The notes under the pieces are model-generated. The model did not search any database and was not told the DNA's origin. It was given only the letters and a program-made list of their open reading frames with translations. Positions 503-27,100 of a stretch of DNA of 64,000 nt are shown here, one piece after another. The position numbers and the translations under genes were made by a program. The stretch comes from a virus: IMG/VR virus record IMGVR_UViG_3300020198_000887, positions 1 through 64,000 of that record, one strand, 5' to 3'. The first letter of the stretch is position 1; every line of letters begins with the position of its first letter.

Positions 503-559
503 AAAAATGTGCCATAAGCAGTGAAAAATGTAGTGGTATGTATGTGATACAAATATTAA

Positions 560-638
560 GTTCTTTTCAGCATAATTAATTGGGAAATACAAGCGACACT
601 AAATCGTAAGTTAGAAGGTTCAAATCCTTCAAAAAACA
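560..638 (+). tRNA. Degenerate tRNA-like sequence (CUA at anticodon position)
   Basis: A perfect T-arm (GAAGG / TTCAAAT / CCTTC at 614-630) is followed by acceptor strand 631-637, which pairs 6 of 7 with 560-566. The D-arm is poor. The anticodon stem at 592-596/604-608 pairs only 4 of 5. The seven-base loop places CTA at 34-36 but has A, not U, at position 33. This looks like a decaying tRNA gene; if functional it would read UAG. Confidence 0.4.
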
Positions 639-710
639 AAGAACCTGCTGTTAAAAATAACTCAACCATATTCAATACATAAACAATAAACTTATTTGAT
701 AAGTAGTTGT

Positions 711-1179: not shown

Positions 1180-1196
1180 ACATATATAGATTAAAA

Positions 1197-1277
1197 GGAT
1201 AGCTACAGCATCAACCAAATTACAGGTTCGATTCCAGTCCCTATAATGGGACTGCTTAACTGGTAAAGCATCTATCC
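1197..1277 (+). ncRNA. Y-RNA-like / circularly permuted tRNA mimic (element E1)
   Basis: The ends pair as GGATAG (1197-1202) with CTATCC (1272-1277). Inside, in this order, are a T-arm (ACAGG / TTCGATT / CCAGT, 1222-1238), a closed acceptor-like hairpin (CAGTCCC - TATAAT - GGGACTG, 1235-1254) and a D-arm (GCTT / AACTGGTA / AAGC, 1254-1269). The 3' half of a tRNA thus precedes its 5' half, with the acceptor stem capped by a loop. This is the layout known for the tRNA-like module of bacterial YrlA Y RNAs, whose 5' and 3' ends form the Ro60-binding stem. The T-stem and the acceptor-like stem overlap by a few bases, so the exact fold is uncertain. It directly follows the cluster promoter. Confidence 0.6.
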
Positions 1278-1334
1278 TGATGAAGATTTATTGCGTTATG
1301 GCGATATGGAGAAATTGGTAAACTCAGCAGACTT

Positions 1335-2180: not shown

Positions 2181-2230
2181 GATACATTTAGCAGTTTAAA
2201 AAACAAACTTAAAATTTGAAAAAACGTATC
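2181..2230 (+). ncRNA. Short stem-closed element E5
   Basis: The ends GATAC (2181-2185) and GTATC (2226-2230) pair. ATTTAGCA follows the 5' arm, and an inner hairpin AGTTT/AAACT is present. It shares the pattern stem, then (T)CAGCA, then insert, then stem, then C-x-GTATAA with elements at 3799, 4501 and 4687, but has no tRNA-like insert. It may be a degenerate relative. Confidence 0.35.
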
Positions 2231-2419
2231 CTGTATAAATATTATATTCAACAACATATAGAATGGTATGAAATATACAAAGAAGTTGGGTTTGACGAGT
2301 TTGTAAGAAGAACTGGGTATAATTATTCAAAACCAAATTTAGTAACAGCATTTTCTAAATTAGTTCCGAATTTTATTCCACAAAACGGTAAGAAAAGATA
2401 TTCCCCTGTAGCTCAGTAG
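2216..2419 (+). CDS. Hypothetical protein, possibly N-terminally truncated
   Basis: The stretch EWYEIYKEVGFDEFV and the C-end KLVPNFIPQNGKKR read like a genuine small phage protein. The only start is a TTG inside element E5 with no Shine-Dalgarno, and the last codons run into the tRNA-Asn gene. No function is recognised. It may be the 3' remnant of a longer gene disrupted when RNA elements were inserted. Confidence 0.4.
   Translation: MKKRILYKYYIQQHIEWYEIYKEVGFDEFVRRTGYNYSKPNLVTAFSKLVPNFIPQNGKKRYSPVAQ
2234..2241 (+). promoter_or_regulatory. T4-type late promoter (TATAAATA)
   Basis: An exact TATAAATA, the -10-like box recognised by T4 gp55-family late sigma factors. It abuts element E5 and precedes the tRNA-Asn gene. 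Confidence 0.5.
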
Positions 2420-2670
2420 GTAGAGCAGTTGACTGTCAAAAGGCAGCTTCTATTGGAAACAATAGTTGAAAAATCCATCAAATTCGGTGAAACCTAAAAT
2501 CGTATGAATATGGCAATACCGAGCCAAGCCTGGAAATAGGAAGGTGTAGAGACTAGACGGTGGAGACCTAAGTTCATAAGAATATGGTCGTGGTATAGTC
2601 CAGAGAGTAATGAAAATTGCACAAATCTGTAATCAATTGGTCGGCGGTTCGAGCCCGTCCGGGGGAGCCA
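2402..2670 (+). tRNA. tRNA-Asn(GUU), interrupted by a group I intron
   Basis: Exon 1 is 2402-2436 and exon 2 is 2630-2670. Acceptor TCCCCTG/CGGGGGA, G73 and CCA (2668-2670). D-arm GCTC/GAGC, T-arm GGCGG/CCGTC. Splicing after U2436 and G2629 gives loop CTGTTAA, anticodon GUU. A naive reading of GTC (Asp) ignores the U-exon/G-intron rule. Confidence 0.88.
2437..2629 (+). other. Compact group I intron in tRNA-Asn(GUU)
   Basis: A 193-base intron between anticodon bases 35 and 36. It holds P (AAATTCGGTGAAACC), Q (AATACCGAGCC), R (GTGTAGAGACTAGACGG) and S (TATAGTCC). P7 is GACTA (2551-2555) with TAGTC (2596-2600), compensatory to GACTT/AAGTC in the Leu intron. It carries no endonuclease. Likely related to the Leu intron but at a different anticodon position. 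Confidence 0.88.
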
Positions 2671-2814
2671 AAATGCATAGCGTCGGCTTTACGCTATGGT
2701 AGGAAAGTGCCTACTGCTCAACGTATATGAGTATCTGCGAAGCAGAAACCTACGGGTTGCCTAACAAACTACAACTAGAGTTGTTATTCGAGTAACAACA
2801 TAAGCAACTATTAT
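2671..2814 (+). ncRNA. Unidentified structured RNA candidate
   Basis: No ORF. Consecutive hairpins can be drawn: TAGCGT/ACGCTA (about 2675-2694), GTAGG/CCTAC, CTCA/TGAG, TCTGC-GAA-GCAGA, and GTTGTTA/TAACAAC (about 2778-2797). A second CCTAC copy could pair with GTAGG instead, giving an alternative fold. It lies between tRNA-Asn and a CAU tRNA, so it is co-transcribed with them. It matches no tmRNA, RNase P or group I core that I can see. Confidence 0.35.
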
Positions 2815-3716: not shown

Positions 3717-3792
3717 GCCCCTGTAGCTCAGTTGGTAGAGCGATTCACTTAAAGTGAGGATGATGTGGGTTCAAATCCTGTCGGGGGCCCCA
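3717..3792 (+). tRNA. tRNA with UAA anticodon and class I body
   Basis: Acceptor GCCCCTG/CGGGGGC, C73 and CCA (3790-3792), D-arm GCTC/GAGC, anticodon loop CTTAAAG. It decodes UUA by sequence, but the variable loop is 5 bases and the body is not leucine-like. Charging identity is uncertain. Confidence 0.8.
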
Positions 3793-3798
3793 ATTTTA

Positions 3799-3908
3799 GG
3801 ATACATTCAGCAAATCTAAAGCACCCTAGATGTCGTAGGTTCAAATCCTACATTCTCATAATGAGAATTAGCTCAGTTGGTAGAGCGCCAGGCTAAAAAC
3901 ACGTATCC
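3799..3908 (+). ncRNA. Y-RNA-like / circularly permuted tRNA mimic (element E2)
   Basis: The ends GGATAC (3799-3804) and GTATCC (3903-3908) pair. Inside, in permuted order: anticodon-stem 3' strand CCTAG (3825-3829), a 5-base variable loop, perfect T-arm GTAGG / TTCAAAT / CCTAC (3835-3851), acceptor strand ATTCTCA (3852-3858), linker TAA, acceptor strand TGAGAAT (3862-3868; 7 of 7 pairs), T8-A9, perfect D-arm GCTC / AGTTGGTA / GAGC (3871-3886), and anticodon-stem 5' strand CCAGG (3888-3892) followed by CT. This matches the architecture described for bacterial YrlA RNAs, where the tRNA-like module has a capped acceptor and the anticodon side continues into the Ro60-binding stem. It ends just upstream of the ppiC ribosome site. 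Confidence 0.75.
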
Positions 3909-4500: not shown

Positions 4501-4584
4501 GGGTTAGTTTCAGCAATATTATTGTACATGAAAAATACCAGACGCCAGGTAGGGAAATAAGCAATACCCAATGGCGACTAACCC
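4501..4584 (+). ncRNA. Stem-closed RNA element E3
   Basis: The ends GGGTTAG (4501-4507) and CTAACCC (4578-4584) pair perfectly. TTTCAGCAATA follows the 5' arm, as in E2 and E4, and CGTATAAATG follows the 3' arm. An inner hairpin CGCCA/TGGCG is present. There is no T- or D-arm. Candidate Y-RNA without a tRNA-like module. Confidence 0.45.
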
Positions 4585-4677: not shown

Positions 4678-4686
4678 TATTGTTAG

Positions 4687-4893
4687 GATGGGTTCCGCAA
4701 TAAAATTTAATTAATTCTATTAGTATAAATGCTACACTGGATGTATACAGTTATATGTAATGGATATTGCTAGAAAGAGTAACTAGATATGCTCCAATCT
4801 GAATATTGGATATTTCTTATAGAAATAAGATATGGTTGCGGATTATATCTGATGACAACCAGAAACAATAAAATACATCAAATCCGACCATCC
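4687..4893 (+). ncRNA. Long stem-closed RNA element E4
   Basis: The ends GGATGG (4687-4692) and CCATCC (4888-4893) pair. The 5' flank continues TTCCGCAATA and the 3' flank CGTATAAC plus a T-rich run, mirroring E3. The roughly 200-base interior has no ORF. It may be a further Y-RNA-like transcript; the interior fold is unresolved. Confidence 0.35.
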
Positions 4894-5172: not shown

Positions 5173-5234
5173 CAATTATAGATTAGTAACAGCAATCAAG
5201 ATTACTACATACTAACCTGAAATAGGAGATATTC

Positions 5235-6746
5235 ATGACTACATTCGTAGAAGACGCACGAGAACAAGAATCACGCATATCAAATGGGGTGGCTGCTCAT
5301 AAGACCACTACCAATAAAGCAGTGGATTTATTCTTTAATATTGGTGCAAGTAGAGGAAAGGACATTATTCCAGCGTTTACCGCAGCATATGCGGAAAACA
5401 AAGATCTAGCACTTCGTATTGCATTATGGGCGCGTGATGCTCGAGGTGGTGCAGGTGAACGTAAATTGTTCAGAGATATTCTTGTGCATTTAGAAACTGT
5501 TGACACCGATGCTGCAAAAGCATTAATTAATAAAACAATATTGGTAGGAAGGTGGGATGACTTATTAGTGTTTAAGACACCGGAATTGCAACAAGTGGCT
5601 TTCACTAAAATTAAAAACACACTTGTTGCAGGAATACAAGCTAAATCATTATTAGATAGATTTGATGCAATGACTGAAGAAGAAACACTAAAACAAAAAC
5701 TTCAATCACAAATATTCGAAGCAAAATTAGTTGCAAAATGGATGCCTCGTGAAAACTCGGCAAAAAGAAAAATTGCTCAAAAATTAATTAAATTTTTTGG
5801 ATGGTCGCCAAAATATTATCGTAAAACATTGGTTTCATTGACTTCGGTGGTTGAAAACAAAATGTGTGCGAATGATTGGGATAATATTAACTTCAGTCAT
5901 GTTCCATCTTTAGCTAGCTCACGTTATAAAAAAGCGTTTAATCGTCATACACCAAAATTTGCTGAATATGTACAATCATTGATCAACGGTGAACCAACTG
6001 TCAAAGTCAATGCTGGTGCAGTATACCCATATGATATTATTAAAGGAATTGGTATATATGGGTATGATAAAACTGAAAATGCCCATATCGTTGCACAATG
6101 GGATTCTCTTCCAAATTATGTAGGTGATGCTAATATTTTACCTTTGGTTGATGTTAGTGGGTCTATGCAGTGTAGAGCTGGTGGTAATAAATCCAACTCA
6201 GATGTCACGTGTATGGATGTAGCAGTATCCTTGGGGTTATATATAGCTAATAAAAATTCTGGTAAATTTAAAGATACCTTTATCACGTTTAGTGAAACCC
6301 CTGAATTGCGCACATTGCGTGGTAATATTGTGGAAAAAGCAACACAAATGATTGCCTCAAATTGGGGTATGGGAACTAATTTACACGCTGCATTTGACTT
6401 GATTTTAGACGTAGCAACCAAGTTTGATGTTCCACAAAGTGAAATGCCAGAAATGCTACTTATTCTGACGGATATGCAATTTAATTGCTGCACACATTAT
6501 GATGATAGTGCAATTAAAATGATTGAACGTAAGTATACCGCAGCTGGTTATAACACCCCGTTGGTTGTATTTTGGAATATCAATTCATCTGATAACGTCC
6601 CAGTGAAAGCAGACAAATCAGGTGCAGCATTGGTTTCAGGGTTTAGTTCTGCTATCGTTAAATCATTATTGGCAGCTGATATGGGTAATTTCACACCAGA
6701 AGGCATTTGTCTTAACACAGTAATGATTGATAGATATACTATTTAA
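5235..6746 (+). CDS. Ro60/TROVE-like vWA protein (DUF2828-type)
   Basis: 503 residues with a strong AGGAGA ribosome site. Residues 1 to about 280 are helical repeats of the kind that build the Ro60 ring (LALRIALWARDARGGAGERKLF, KLIKFFGWSPKYYRK). Residues about 300-480 are a von Willebrand A domain with a MIDAS metal site DVSGSM at 306, a distal threonine region (GMGTNLHAAF) and LILTDMQF. This repeat-ring plus vWA architecture is that of Ro60/Rsr and the related DUF2828 family. Ro60 binds misfolded small RNAs and Y RNAs, and bacterial Y RNAs are usually encoded next to rsr. Here permuted tRNA-like elements lie just upstream, which supports an RNA-chaperone role, but RNA binding itself is inferred. 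Confidence 0.75.
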   Translation: MTTFVEDAREQESRISNGVAAHKTTTNKAVDLFFNIGASRGKDIIPAFTAAYAENKDLALRIALWARDARGGAGERKLFRDILVHLETVDTDAAKALINKTILVGRWDDLLVFKTPELQQVAFTKIKNTLVAGIQAKSLLDRFDAMTEEETLKQKLQSQIFEAKLVAKWMPRENSAKRKIAQKLIKFFGWSPKYYRKTLVSLTSVVENKMCANDWDNINFSHVPSLASSRYKKAFNRHTPKFAEYVQSLINGEPTVKVNAGAVYPYDIIKGIGIYGYDKTENAHIVAQWDSLPNYVGDANILPLVDVSGSMQCRAGGNKSNSDVTCMDVAVSLGLYIANKNSGKFKDTFITFSETPELRTLRGNIVEKATQMIASNWGMGTNLHAAFDLILDVATKFDVPQSEMPEMLLILTDMQFNCCTHYDDSAIKMIERKYTAAGYNTPLVVFWNINSSDNVPVKADKSGAALVSGFSSAIVKSLLAADMGNFTPEGICLNTVMIDRYTI

Positions 6747-8094: not shown

Positions 8095-10260
8095 ATGTCG
8101 CTACGATTAAGACGAGGCACAAATGCCGAAAGATTATCAGCAACAATTGATTCAGGTGAATTAGTATATGTAACTGATACTAATAAACTATATATTGGTG
8201 ATGGACAAAGTCCAAACCATGGGGTAAACATTTTATCAACATCTGCTGGTATTGGGTTATCATGGAATGACACAACCCAAAAAATTGACCTGAGTTCAGC
8301 AACCATGACTACTGCAAATATTGCTGAATTTGGGAATTTATATTTTACTGCAGAACGGGCGCAAGATGCAATATCGACCCTATTTTCACATAATTCACAT
8401 AATGGCATAACATTTCAATATGATGATTTGAATAATAAAATTAATGCAACTGTGGTACCATTGTTACCTTCCAATAGTGTTGGGTTTTTATACAACACCG
8501 GTAATGGTACATTATCTTGGAATACTACCAACTTTGCATTACAAAACATAGCAGAAGATACTACACCTATGTTAGGTGGGTCATTAAATTTGAATGGCAA
8601 TGATATTATCGGATATGGTGATATTACTATTACCGGAAAAATTGAGTTAGATGGCACTGTGCAGGGTAATATAATACCTAATATTTCATCGGTGTATACA
8701 TTAGGAAACATCAATTATCGCTTGAGCCAAGCATATATCAACACCGTTTACATTGGAAATGAAAATATTTCAAATGATGGTGGGCTAACTATCAGTTCAG
8801 TAACGAATCCAAATGTTTATATTAATAATGTCGGACCGGCACCAGCTAGCTTACGTCTCAGGAAAGCAAAGGGGGCTGTTGGTGATTTACAAACAGTTGC
8901 AGTAAATGACACAATATATGAAATTAAATGGGATGCATATACTACTGATAATGGTTACTTACCAGTGGCTGGAATTGTTGCGAAAGTAACAAACCCCCCT
9001 ACTACGACAGTTGTCCCAACAAAACTTGATTTCTATACAACTGACATTGATGGCAGTAATACGGTAAAAGTATCAATTTTATCTAATGGGCGCTTATCTG
9101 TAATAAATGGGTTGACAACGCATGGGTTAACGTTGGAATATGATACATTATCAGCTAATAATGTAAGTGGATTTGTCCGAATTAATGGTAAGTTGAGTGT
9201 TTCGCAGGACATAGTTGTATTAGGTGATATTCAAGACGCATTTGGCAGATCTCTTATATCTACCCCATTGACTAACCATTTTTATGTAAATCCACAAATG
9301 CCAGGAACATATACCCCTGATGGCAGTATTCAAAAACCATTTTTAACAATCGCCGACGCGCAATTCGCCGCAACACAACTTATTGTTGATGAAGTAATCG
9401 CGCCGTCTGAAGGAAATCCAATTTTTATTGTGTTGCAAGGAAATGTTGTAGAAGATGTAATTTTAGATCATGGGCATATTTTCTTAATCGGGCAATACGG
9501 TGGAATTCATGCACCCATTTACATTTATGGAACTATTACCATAAATGGGTCTGATACAACGGTAAATTCATACGAACTTAATCAATTCAGTATCCAAGGT
9601 GTTTCGGTAGTTTCACCGGACCAGCACGCAAGCATTTACTTTACTGGGGCTAACCCACAACAATTAATGTTAAAAGATGTATGGTTATCCGCGAGTGGCA
9701 ATCAAACCGGGACAGTTCCGTTTACAGATGCTGGTGGTTATAGCATATATTCCGACAACACTGGTATACGATTGAGTGATAACACGCGGTCAACCATTCA
9801 CGGCTCGGATATTAAGTTTAGTCATTCAGGAGCAGGTGATGTATATTGCATTAACATGCTACATGGGGTTTGTGAATTAAGTCACGTCGAAACTAGTAAT
9901 ATTACCCAATTTGGTGCAGTTAAGTCCGGGGCAGCACTTACTTTGCAAAACTCAACCATTATTGGGAATGGGGAGAGTGTGATTGAAGCCTATGGAACTG
10001 GGGTTCTAACATTGACTTCATGCCTACTTGTGAATACTCAACCTAATTCAAATGGGATTAAATTAAATAGCGGCACATCCACTGTTATTATTGGTAACTG
10101 TACGTTCAATATACCGGCGGGTAGTGGAAAAGCGGTGTATAATATCACATCTGGTGGGGCGTTATTCCACTCAGGTAGTATGTTTATGCCTAATTCAAAT
10201 AATAAAATAACAAGTACTATTTTGGCAACTGAATTAGTGACAATATTTGATAATACATAA
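8095..10260 (+). CDS. Tail fibre / adhesin with beta-helix
   Basis: 721 residues. The N-terminus SLRLRRGTNAERLSATIDSG followed by GELVYVTDTNKLYIGDG is the widespread phage fibre-attachment motif. The middle has repeated strand-turn units. Residues about 390-720 look like a right-handed parallel beta-helix (TPDGSIQKPFLTIADAQ, then short Ser/Gly/Asn-rich repeats and CELSHVETSN). It probably binds or processes a host surface polysaccharide. It has its own late promoter and a strong terminator, so it is monocistronic. Confidence 0.8.
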   Translation: MSLRLRRGTNAERLSATIDSGELVYVTDTNKLYIGDGQSPNHGVNILSTSAGIGLSWNDTTQKIDLSSATMTTANIAEFGNLYFTAERAQDAISTLFSHNSHNGITFQYDDLNNKINATVVPLLPSNSVGFLYNTGNGTLSWNTTNFALQNIAEDTTPMLGGSLNLNGNDIIGYGDITITGKIELDGTVQGNIIPNISSVYTLGNINYRLSQAYINTVYIGNENISNDGGLTISSVTNPNVYINNVGPAPASLRLRKAKGAVGDLQTVAVNDTIYEIKWDAYTTDNGYLPVAGIVAKVTNPPTTTVVPTKLDFYTTDIDGSNTVKVSILSNGRLSVINGLTTHGLTLEYDTLSANNVSGFVRINGKLSVSQDIVVLGDIQDAFGRSLISTPLTNHFYVNPQMPGTYTPDGSIQKPFLTIADAQFAATQLIVDEVIAPSEGNPIFIVLQGNVVEDVILDHGHIFLIGQYGGIHAPIYIYGTITINGSDTTVNSYELNQFSIQGVSVVSPDQHASIYFTGANPQQLMLKDVWLSASGNQTGTVPFTDAGGYSIYSDNTGIRLSDNTRSTIHGSDIKFSHSGAGDVYCINMLHGVCELSHVETSNITQFGAVKSGAALTLQNSTIIGNGESVIEAYGTGVLTLTSCLLVNTQPNSNGIKLNSGTSTVIIGNCTFNIPAGSGKAVYNITSGGALFHSGSMFMPNSNNKITSTILATELVTIFDNT

Positions 10261-24100: not shown

Positions 24101-27100
24101 CGGGTTAATTGTCGACGCAATGGCTATTGACCTTGTAACAGGCGGCACATGGCAATCTATCAACGCCGGTAAAAGTTATTATAAAAATGCAAGTTCTCAC
24201 GCAATTGCAATTGGTACACAATTTAGTGAAACAATAGACGGCATCGAATTTGTTAAAGGGTTGGGATTACAAGTTTTAACTCAAACCACTGCTAGTCGGT
24301 ATCAAACATTATTCACACAAACATTTGATAGTGTAAACCATGCGTCTATAAATGCGAATGATACTTTCATTTATAACATGGAAACCATTACAAACATAAT
24401 CAAATTTGGGGTCGGGGCCGCCCCCACGCCAACATTTGGCAGTGGTATTTGGAATATTGTGATTGATAATGGTGGCAATGGATATGTTGATCAAGGTTCA
24501 CCATTGAATAACGATATTATACCAGCAAAAGCATTAATTGGTACTGATTCATTGGCATACTCTTCTATTGTCAAGTATATACCAGAGAGTGCACCCGGGG
24601 TTGATACCATCCAAGTTAGAATGACTAAGCCTGGGTTATATACGGTTGGTGAACAAGTTGAATTTGGTGAAACTGTACGTGATCTTAACATCACTATTTT
24701 TGTAGAAAGTGGGGTGTATTATGAAGACTACCCAATTAGATTACCCGCAAATTGCTCTATTAAAGGGGATGATATCAGAAGAACCATTATTAGGCCACGT
24801 GACCGTGTCTCACAATCACCATGGCGTAAAATATTCTTCTATCGTGACGCAATAGTTGATGCAATGGAAGTCGGGGTGGTCAATTATACTGGACCGAACT
24901 ATGCACCCAACACTAACATAACACTTAGCGGTTCATCAGAAAAAATCATTGTAACTTTAGCAAATGGCCAAGCGTCATCTACCTGGATTGGAAAAGTTAT
25001 TACTGACAACAACATAGTAAAACGTGGTAAAGCTATTATCGATTCAGTAAGTGGCAACTTTATGAATTGTTCAGTAATATACCCATTCAGTACTATCGGG
25101 GTTCTTAATACTGGGGACTGGTTCATATATGATTCTATTAACTATGGACGACATTATTTAACTAATCCATTAGATATTACTAGTCCGTCCAAAAATAACA
25201 AAGACATTGATGTATTCCTATGTAATGATGCAACCCGTATTTCCAATATTACATTTCAAGGACATGGTGGATTTGCAATGGTTCTTGACCCTGGTGGCCA
25301 GATTAAAACTAAATCACCGTATGGTCAAGATTGTTCATCATTTACCCAAAGCACCAATAAAAAACGGTTTGCTGGCGGGCAATATGTGGATGGGTTTGCT
25401 GGTCGCTTAACTGGAACTATAACCGATATTGCAGACAATGGTATAACACTAACAGTGGTTGGTGGTCCTAATAGTGGGTTGGATATTCGCCCTCCACACC
25501 CACCATGTGCATTTTATGTACAAGGCCAACGATATCAAGTAGATGACATTGTAAGTTTTGATGCATCAACTGCAACGGTTGTGATGACACTAAATGTCGC
25601 AACACCATACAATGCAGCAGATTCATATAATAATTCAAAATGTTCACGTGATGTCGGGTTGATTATTGATGCAATTGGATATGATATGGTATTGGGTTCA
25701 AACTTCCAGTCAGTTAAAGCTGGCTTATCATATCTTCGTTCGTATTCGAATACAGTTATTAATAGACAAAAAATTCAAACAATTGCTGGTATTAATAAAG
25801 CAAAAGAATTGGCTAATGCAACATCATCCAATTCCAGTGTGCAATCTGCAATAAATGATAGAATGAATATTATTATGTCTATTATTGAACACGGAATTAC
25901 AAGTATACCCGCAATTACGTATCCAACACCAGTTGGGGCAAGCGAAGATTCGGTCAAAGCTAAAGATATACTAGTTGCCAATCGAAAATTCATTCAAACT
26001 GAAATTACCGCATGGATCTCTAGCAATTATGCTGTCAAATTAATCCCAAACTACAATGCACTAACATGTCAGCGTGATGTAGGATATATTCTTGATGCAA
26101 TGGTGTATGATTTATTTTATGGTGGGAATAGTCAAACTAGGGATTCGGCTGAAGCATACTGGCGGATTTCTGGAACTGCAACCAGCTATATTATTGGTGA
26201 AGAATCTGTTACTATTGCAGCATATACTAGATTAAAAACGATTATACAATCTATAGTTGCGGGGACATCCATCACCAAATCATCTGGTAATACAAGAACG
26301 CAAGTGACTGATAACCCCCCAACTAATCCAAGTTCTTTCAATACTATACTATCATCATTGAGTGATATATTGATAGATTATATACCAGACCACAGTTATA
26401 CTAGTGGAACAGCTGATTATCCAACTATTACACAACAATCTAGTAGTCTACAAACTGCCAGAACCGCTATTTTAACGGCGAAACCAACTATTCAATCATC
26501 TGTAATCTCTTTCTTAAACAGTGGAGGTGGCTTAAAAATAAACATTGAAATGGGTGGCAATAAATCCATGATAGCAAATGATTTTGCCATGATTAATGAC
26601 CTCGGATACGCAATTATCGCTACCAATGGGGCAGTTTCTGAACAAATGTCAACCTTTAGCTATTACTGTCACACCCATTTCTGGGCAAACAATGGTGGGC
26701 AAATTCGTGCAATAGCCGGGTCCAATTCACACGGAAAGTATGGCTTGCGGGCATCTGGTTATGATGTAACTGAATTACCAGATTCAGTTACATTAGCTAA
26801 TAATCTAATTCAAACTGCAAGAATTTACAAGCAAGGTGTGGTATCCAATGAAATGACACCAACTGCAACAACACAATCATTGGCATTATGGATAATAGGG
26901 TATGAGTACGAACCACTGAACGGGTGTGAAGTTGAAATAGATCACACTGTTTTTAATGGGGGTATTTCCAGATACGAAGCTAACTCCATTGAACATACTA
27001 ATATTACAATTAGTGGGCAAAATGTTCTTAAATTATATTTAAACACATCTGGTAATAATGGAACATCAACAACCGGGTTACATACCGAATTATACCATGG

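What the first reader, a model, noticed from the sequence alone, without database searches (positions are those of the whole stretch)
3799..3908. Near-perfect circularly permuted tRNA (element E2)
All tRNA arms are present but the 3' half comes first: T-arm 5/5, acceptor 7/7 across a 3-base linker, D-arm 4/4, U8-A9 and variable loop of normal size, anticodon stem 4/5. The outer stem GGATAC/GTATCC joins the broken anticodon side. It could be a Y-RNA module or a precursor that is circularised to a real tRNA.
Basis: seen in the sequence. Interest (0 to 1): 0.82.

Follow-up and report, generated by a model that had tools for sequence, protein, structure and literature searches.

The report
Phage Y RNA mimicking a tRNA
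The element is not a gene for a scrambled tRNA but a phage-encoded Y RNA, a known kind of small RNA whose head imitates a tRNA in permuted order and whose stem should bind a Ro60-type protein encoded 1.3 kb downstream; the unexpected part is that related phages also carry the same RNA in the opposite, normal tRNA order.

Summary
In detail: all arms lie exactly at 3799-3908, and the tRNA core positions (U8-A14-A21, G15-C48, G18G19, TTCAA) are intact. The element is a bacterial-type Y RNA (YrlA class). It aligns end to end with Rfam YrlA (36.5 bits, E 6e-6, below the curated cut-off of 69). It carries the stem-NNN-CAGCA ... AAAAAC-stem motif shared by Y-type elements beside phage Ro60 genes. The 503-aa gene 1.3 kb downstream has a Ro60 fold (Z 16.6 to a phage Ro60, 15.3 to Xenopus Ro60). 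Permuted tRNA order is the published hallmark of YrlA, so this is a new member of a known kind. Splicing to a working tRNA is not supported: the anticodon loop is not conserved. Two things look new, on limited literature access. Some Ro60 phages encode the same RNA in normal tRNA order, often with CCA; Klebsiella phage FBKp34 has both orders 190 nt apart. A Y-type hairpin also precedes the ro60 Shine-Dalgarno in 59 of 90 loci (2.1 expected).

The parts
3799..3908 (+). Y RNA with permuted tRNA-like domain (element E2)
   Evidence: YrlA covariance model 36.5 bits, E 6e-6; syntenic homologues L188:1101-1208 and L189:1731-1839
3799..3812 (+). 5' strand of the Ro60-type stem GGATAC plus conserved ATTCAGCA
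   Evidence: shared motif stem-NNN-CAGCA in homologues and in the other Y-type hairpins
3825..3829 (+). 3' strand of the anticodon-stem equivalent CCTAG (pairs with 3888-3892, 4/5)
   Evidence: pairing 58% in 33 homologues against 37% shuffled, maximum 48%
3835..3851 (+). T arm, 5 bp, loop TTCAAAT
   Evidence: conserved in homologues
3852..3868 (+). acceptor-stem equivalent closed as a hairpin: ATTCTCA-taa-TGAGAAT
   Evidence: pairing 84% against 45% shuffled in 33 homologues; compensatory change to CATTTC-aata-GAAATG in L188/L189
3869..3886 (+). U8-A9 and D arm GCTC-AGTTGGTA-GAGC; G15 pairs C48 (3834)
   Evidence: Levitt pair 15-48 covaries: 18 G-C and 7 A-T of 33, 0 of 5000 shuffles reach it
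3888..3892 (+). 5' strand of the anticodon-stem equivalent CCAGG
3893..3908 (+). 3' strand of the Ro60-type stem: CTAAAAACAC-GTATCC
   Evidence: A-run plus stem shared with the other Y-type elements
5235..6746 (+). phage Ro60 homologue (DUF2828 + DUF7788), 503 aa, MIDAS DxSGS...T...D
   Evidence: Pfam; AlphaFold2 model; Foldseek 9kop TROVE E 8e-9; VIA Z 18.1 to 9kop, 16.6 to phage phiLo Ro60, 15.3 to Xenopus Ro60, 11.8 to Deinococcus Rsr
559..645 (+). further Y-type element: GTTCTT-TTCAGCA ... AAGAAC, with a perfect T arm only
1196..1278 (+). further Y-type element, compact tRNA-like domain (GGATAG-CTACAGCA ... CTATCC); consensus sigma-70 promoter at 1151-1179
   Evidence: YrlA model 19.9 bits; fold z -3.5; promoter 12/12
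2181..2230 (+). short Y-type hairpin GATAC-ATTTAGCA ... AAAAAAC-GTATC without tRNA-like domain
   Evidence: relative at L189:1217-1268; not significant in the single-sequence fold
4501..4584 (+). Y-type element GGGTTAGT-TTCAGCA ... GCG-ACTAACCC between the Cpn10 gene and tRNA-Cys
   Evidence: same place in L188:1807-1887 with another stem sequence
4686..4893 (+). long Y-type element GGATGG-GTTCCGCA ... CCATCC followed by a T-run
   Evidence: counterpart L188:3158-3368
5183..5219 (+). Y-type hairpin in the ro60 leader, TTAGTA-ACAGCA ... TACTAA-CCTG, just before the Shine-Dalgarno
   Evidence: 59 of 90 distinct ro60 leaders have such a hairpin against 2.1 expected

Best explanation
E2 is a phage Y RNA of the YrlA kind. 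The 110-nt RNA is probably co-transcribed with the tRNA just upstream (inferred). Its ends close into a short stem with an asymmetric internal loop (CAGCA opposite AAAAAC), which should bind the outer face of the phage Ro60 ring (5235-6746). The other end folds as a tRNA elbow: T arm, a capped acceptor hairpin and D arm in circularly permuted order, stacked on an anticodon-stem equivalent. Shown here: sequence, structure by covariation, the Ro60 fold of the downstream gene, and family kinship. Inferred: the RNA tethers phage Ro60 to a protein that reads tRNA shape, most likely the host exonuclease PNPase as in Deinococcus, so that structured or damaged RNA is handled in the phage's favour. I put the Y RNA identity at about 0.93 and the PNPase tether at about 0.45.
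For: YrlA model aligned 1-114 end to end, E 6e-6. Acceptor complementarity 84% against 45% shuffled, on elements chosen without using it. Levitt 15-48 covariation. Compensatory acceptor change in the syntenic sisters L188/L189. Ro60 fold of the downstream protein, whose homologues occur in 681 phage records, some of them annotated 'RNA-binding' or 'Ro-like'. Shared Ro-stem motif in several Y-type hairpins of this locus and of its relatives. The published YrlA structure 6CU1 superposes on tRNA by circular permutation (PMC11472068). The YrlA stem binds Rsr and its tRNA-like domain binds PNPase (PMC8394870). Abundant non-coding RNAs were measured within 2 kb upstream of the Rsr homologue of Listeria phage CKA15 (PMC12282133), and that region carries three such hairpins.
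Against: The Rfam score is half the curated cut-off, and weak YrlA hits also ring in control genomes, presumably because of their tRNAs. No expression data exist for this phage. The single-sequence fold does not draw the D arm. The outer stem was part of the selection rule, so its covariation is not an independent test. The CKA15 paper calls its RNAs Y RNAs only as a possibility, and its strongest region (26,236-26,727) is not the three hairpins I located. I found no test of PNPase binding in a phage.
Confidence: 0.87

Rival explanations
1. E2 is a permuted tRNA gene as in red algae and some archaea: the transcript is circularised at the outer stem, then opened at the acceptor linker to give a normal tRNA.
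For: All arms of a tRNA are present and the order fits. Joining CCAGG-CTAAAAA to CCTAG would give a 7-nt loop with anticodon AAA.
Against: CTAAAAACAC is the conserved A-rich Ro60-stem strand. The same place reads CATAAAG, CTTTAAAA, AAAAGTCG and so on in relatives, without conserved U33 or loop length. Linkers of 2-19 nt bear no conserved CCA or leader and some are tetraloops such as TTCG. The ring-protein gene and paralogous hairpins without any tRNA part are left unexplained.
Confidence: 0.04
2. A chance or decayed arrangement: the 3' half of one tRNA pseudogene next to the 5' half of another in a tRNA cluster.
For: The locus is rich in tRNA genes, and tandem tRNAs give a T arm followed by a D arm.
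Against: Acceptor strands of different tRNAs would not pair; here they pair 7/7 and covary. The module appears in 1 of 200 shuffled windows. The whole unit with both stem strands recurs in many phages.
Confidence: 0.02
3. Y RNA as above, but its tRNA-like head works as a decoy: it absorbs anticodon nucleases or tRNA-modifying enzymes during infection, and Ro60 only stabilises it.
For: Full tRNA elbow retained. A decoy role against an anticodon nuclease was proposed for Salmonella YrlA, which is not cut by it (PMC7790460). The phage has several tRNAs to protect.
Against: It has no anticodon loop of its own. Many paralogous Y hairpins lack the tRNA part, so binding Ro60 seems the common function.
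Confidence: 0.25

Closest known systems
YrlA, bacterial Y RNA (Rfam RF02553; Salmonella structure 6CU1)
   Same: stem formed by both ends with Ro60 motif, then T arm, capped acceptor hairpin, D arm; Ro60-type gene nearby; circular permutation of tRNA reported for 6CU1 (PMC11472068)
   Different: scores 36.5 against the cut-off of 69; shorter lower stem; the protein is DUF2828-type with the Ro60 fold and has no Pfam TROVE hit; no rtcBA operon (RtcB not found in the 142-kb contig)
Y RNAs of mycobacteriophages and other phages (Chen et al. 2014; cited in PMC7765460 and PMC12282133)
   Same: phage-encoded Y RNA beside a phage Ro60; LeBron has one at L140:5028-5149
   Different: several Y-type elements here, plus the leader hairpin; the original papers were not held, so the comparison is second-hand
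Permuted tRNA genes of algae and archaea
   Same: 3' half precedes 5' half, with a linker in the acceptor stem
   Different: no conserved anticodon loop; ends carry a Ro60-type stem; no evidence of circularisation
Animal Y RNAs (Y1-Y5)
   Same: Ro60-binding stem with an internal loop made by the two ends
   Different: no tRNA-like domain

Membership tests
YrlA-class bacterial/phage Y RNA | terminal stem with conserved Ro60-binding internal loop | tested here: met
   GGATAC-ATTCAGCA ... AAAAACAC-GTATCC, same pattern in homologues and paralogous hairpins; binding itself not tested
YrlA-class bacterial/phage Y RNA | tRNA-like domain in the order T arm, capped acceptor, D arm, with elbow residues | tested here: met
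   YrlA consensus aligned over its whole length
YrlA-class bacterial/phage Y RNA | Ro60 orthologue encoded nearby | tested here: met
   Ro60 fold of 5235-6746
YrlA-class bacterial/phage Y RNA | RNA expressed and bound by Ro60 | not testable with these tools
   no expression or binding data for this contig
Rfam RF02553 as curated | score at or above the gathering cut-off of 69 bits | tested here: not met
   36.5 bits; LeBron, FBKp34 and Bill elements also score only 28-45, so I do not file E2 under the curated family itself
Circularly permuted tRNA gene (algae/archaea) | joined halves give a 7-nt anticodon loop with U33, conserved in homologues | tested here: not met
   the 5' flank of the loop varies and follows the Ro60-strand A-run
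Circularly permuted tRNA gene (algae/archaea) | bulge-helix-bulge splice motif at the ends | not tested
   no formal search; the fold shows a plain 6-bp stem with a wide internal loop
Circularly permuted tRNA gene (algae/archaea) | circular intermediate and mature tRNA | not testable with these tools
   needs RNA sequencing

The most novel reading that the evidence does not exclude
One Y-RNA/tRNA fusion exists in phages in both circular permutations. E2-type has ends in the Ro60 stem and a capped acceptor. The other type has normal tRNA order, an open acceptor often with CCA, and a Y hairpin capped by a short loop in place of, or interrupting, the anticodon loop, so it could be matured by the host's tRNA enzymes. 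Tandem copies read in another register interconvert the two. The same phages place a Y-type hairpin before the ro60 Shine-Dalgarno, so Ro60 may repress its own synthesis.
Probability: 0.6. Interest if true: 0.75.

Novelty: new member of a known kind. Interest (0 to 1): 0.55.

Why it matters
It settles an odd 'scrambled tRNA' as the RNA half of a phage Ro60 particle, and ties to that particle a protein family (DUF2828) found in 681 phage records and often left hypothetical. It supplies a large natural set of tRNA mimics for which the required and dispensable tRNA features can be read off. If the normal-order isomers are confirmed, many '110-120 nt tRNAs' in phage records are wrongly annotated, and nature would offer both permutations of one RNA side by side, a rare test of how RNAs become permuted. 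The leader hairpin makes autoregulation of Ro60 directly testable.

Tried and rejected
Single-protein search of viral contigs found nothing; the 19-sequence alignment found at least 597 stretches that encode relatives, of which 80 were kept. DNA search of phage records with the region returned only ordinary tRNA matches, mostly tRNA-Thr. phmmer against PDB found no Ro60 relative for the protein, and Pfam gave no TROVE hit; only the fold comparison showed Ro60. The pattern D arm...TTCAGCA caught many ordinary tRNAs whose acceptor ends in TTCAGCA, and tandem E2-type arrays (L163, L171, L174, L184) that mimic the other isomer; these were removed by requiring acceptor pairing and a closed Y hairpin. 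RtcB was sought in the own contig and not found. A small hairpin ATCTA...TAGAT in the E2 minimum-energy fold is absent in L188/L189 and was discounted. A covariance model of my own was not built, because the anchor-based statistics were clearer. The original Y RNA papers (PMC4201824, PMC6281776, PMC6047535, PMC10870794) were not held, so I cannot exclude that the normal-order isomer was described there.

Full report
Observation. The T arm is 5/5, the acceptor 7/7 over TAA, the D arm 4/4 and the anticodon stem 4/5, and the outer stem has 6 pairs. The tertiary positions of a tRNA are also kept: U8, A14, A21, G15 with C48, GG in the D loop, TTCAA in the T loop. The module occurs once in the window, and in 1 of 200 shuffled windows. 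The unit folds better than shuffles (z -3.25), although the minimum-energy fold pairs the D region differently.

What it is. In a search of the local region, Rfam's YrlA model, a bacterial Y RNA with a tRNA-like domain, aligns from its first to its last position with E 6e-6. The score of 36.5 is below the curated cut-off of 69. YrlA-type elements beside other phage Ro60 genes score 28-45, so the model seems tuned to cellular members. The gene 1.3 kb downstream (5235-6746) is DUF2828/DUF7788. Its predicted structure matches TROVE/Ro60 structures over nearly its whole length, above the vWA-only matches: 9kop Z 18.1, the Ro60 of Thermus phage phiLo Z 16.6, Xenopus Ro60 15.3, Deinococcus Rsr 11.8. 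Homologues occur in 681 phage records, where some are named 'RNA-binding protein' or 'Ro-like'.

Test of the refuter. I collected E2-like elements from viral contigs using only the T arm, D arm, CAGCA motif and outer stem, not the acceptor. In 33 dereplicated elements the acceptor strands pair in 84% of positions. Re-dealing partners gives 45% on average (maximum 54% in 1000), and sliding the register gives 37-48%. The anticodon-stem equivalent pairs at 58% against 37% (maximum 48%). The Levitt pair 15-48 is G-C in 18 and A-T in 7 of 33, and none of 5000 shuffles reaches that. The nearest homologues, L188 and L189, lie in the same place before a PpiC-type gene and are nearly identical to E2 outside the acceptor. 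There ATTCTCA-taa-TGAGAAT has become CATTTC-aata-GAAATG, which still pairs. So the permuted acceptor is a real, selected helix.

Mechanism. In YrlA the end stem holds the Ro60 orthologue and the tRNA-like domain holds PNPase (PMC8394870). The crystal structure superposes on tRNA by circular permutation (PMC11472068). E2 has both parts, so by analogy it should tether phage Ro60 to a tRNA-reading partner, most simply host PNPase; this step is inferred. A decoy role against anticodon nucleases has been proposed for YrlA (PMC7790460) and remains open.

Not a spliced tRNA. The bases that would form the loop are the A-rich strand of the Ro60 stem and vary in relatives without conserved U33 or loop length. 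The linkers differ in length and sequence and carry no conserved CCA.

A small Y RNA array. Elements with the pattern stem-N2-3-CAGCA ... stem, usually followed by TG or CG, also lie at 559-645, 1196-1278, 2181-2230, 4501-4584, 4686-4893 and 5183-5219. The scan finds 10 such patterns in the first 7 kb against 2.1 in shuffles, maximum 7. The pattern is loose, and not every hit is a Y RNA; 2181-2230 and 5183-5219 were found by eye and by comparison. L188 has about ten, several in matching positions. The last one lies just before the ro60 Shine-Dalgarno. A hairpin of this kind stands there in 59 of 90 distinct ro60 leaders, with 2.1 expected. Whether it is a separate small RNA or an autoregulatory leader is open.

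Independent support for expression. Listeria phages AG20 and CKA15 carry three such hairpins upstream of ro60. In CKA15 very abundant non-coding RNAs were measured within 2 kb upstream of that gene, and the protein was found in purified particles (PMC12282133). The authors suggest Y RNAs as one option. Their strongest region, 26,236-26,727, is not the three hairpins, so the match is suggestive only.

The opposite isomer. Several Ro60 phages carry 111-121-nt 'tRNAs' in normal order with a Y hairpin between D arm and T arm: BUCT-ZZ01 (two), Ci1 (two), S13 (two), Ahp1, FBKp34, PhiImVa-1 and the 360-kb contig of L145 (two, with ro60), plus L177 (98-kb contig, no ro60 found). The ones that reached the tRNA family in the Rfam scans score 41-57 bits, several have CCA encoded, and ARAGORN does not report them as tRNA genes. 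FBKp34 has both isomers 190 nt apart. L145:2505-2621 has the same acceptor pair as E2, TGAGAAT/ATTCTCA, open and followed by T-CCA. In S13 two tandem copies contain an E2-type register between them, which suggests how one order can turn into the other. I found no report of this, but the key Y RNA papers were not available.

Verdict. E2 is a new member of a known kind, phage YrlA-type Y RNA. The permutation is the hallmark of that kind and not a novelty in itself. The isomer pair and the ro60 leader hairpin are the parts worth following.

Noticed in passing
L137:5189-5311 and 5503-5612; L126:7581-7823; L127:7849-8082; L130:5350-5592; L131:7837-7950; L142:3213-3326; L145:1079-1199 and 2505-2621; L177 (minus) about 8524-8640: Normal-order tRNA/Y RNA chimeras, annotated in several records as tRNA-Asp, tRNA-Ser, suppressor or pseudo tRNA; same RNA as E2 in the other circular permutation (L137:5189-5311 is E2-type, beside a normal-order one).
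   Followed up: partly
window 5183-5219 and the ro60 leaders of 59 of 90 loci: Y-type hairpin directly before the Shine-Dalgarno of phage ro60, possible translational feedback by Ro60.
   Followed up: partly
L126:7710-7823, L130:5481-5593, L177 normal-order element, L096 and L099 E2-type elements: Some elements keep an anticodon-loop-like heptamer (CTGTTAA, ATTCCAA, ATGTCAA) just before the 3' anticodon strand, as if real tRNAs of several identities had received the Y hairpin.
   Followed up: no
window 2407-2673: tRNA interrupted by a group I intron (Rfam 59.5 bits at 2420-2622).
   Followed up: no
window about 1298-2072: Another tRNA seems split by about 700 nt that hold an HNH-like endonuclease ORF on the minus strand (1425-1904).
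   Followed up: no
L147, L150, L160, L163, L171, L174, L177, L184: Tandem arrays of E2-type units about 20 nt apart.
   Followed up: partly
Listeria phage CKA15 (PMC12282133) and Pectobacterium phage CBB (L133:3444-4958): The Ro60 homologue was detected in purified CKA15 particles by mass spectrometry and is annotated 'structural protein' in CBB, so the Ro60 particle may travel in the virion.
   Followed up: no
L126:1737-2137: tmRNA, best Rfam match permuted tmRNA, in Synechococcus phage BUCT-ZZ01 upstream of its ro60.
   Followed up: no
window 3717-3792: ARAGORN names this tRNA Phe (aaa), but the standard register gives the loop CTTAAAG with anticodon TAA; the identity is doubtful.
   Followed up: no
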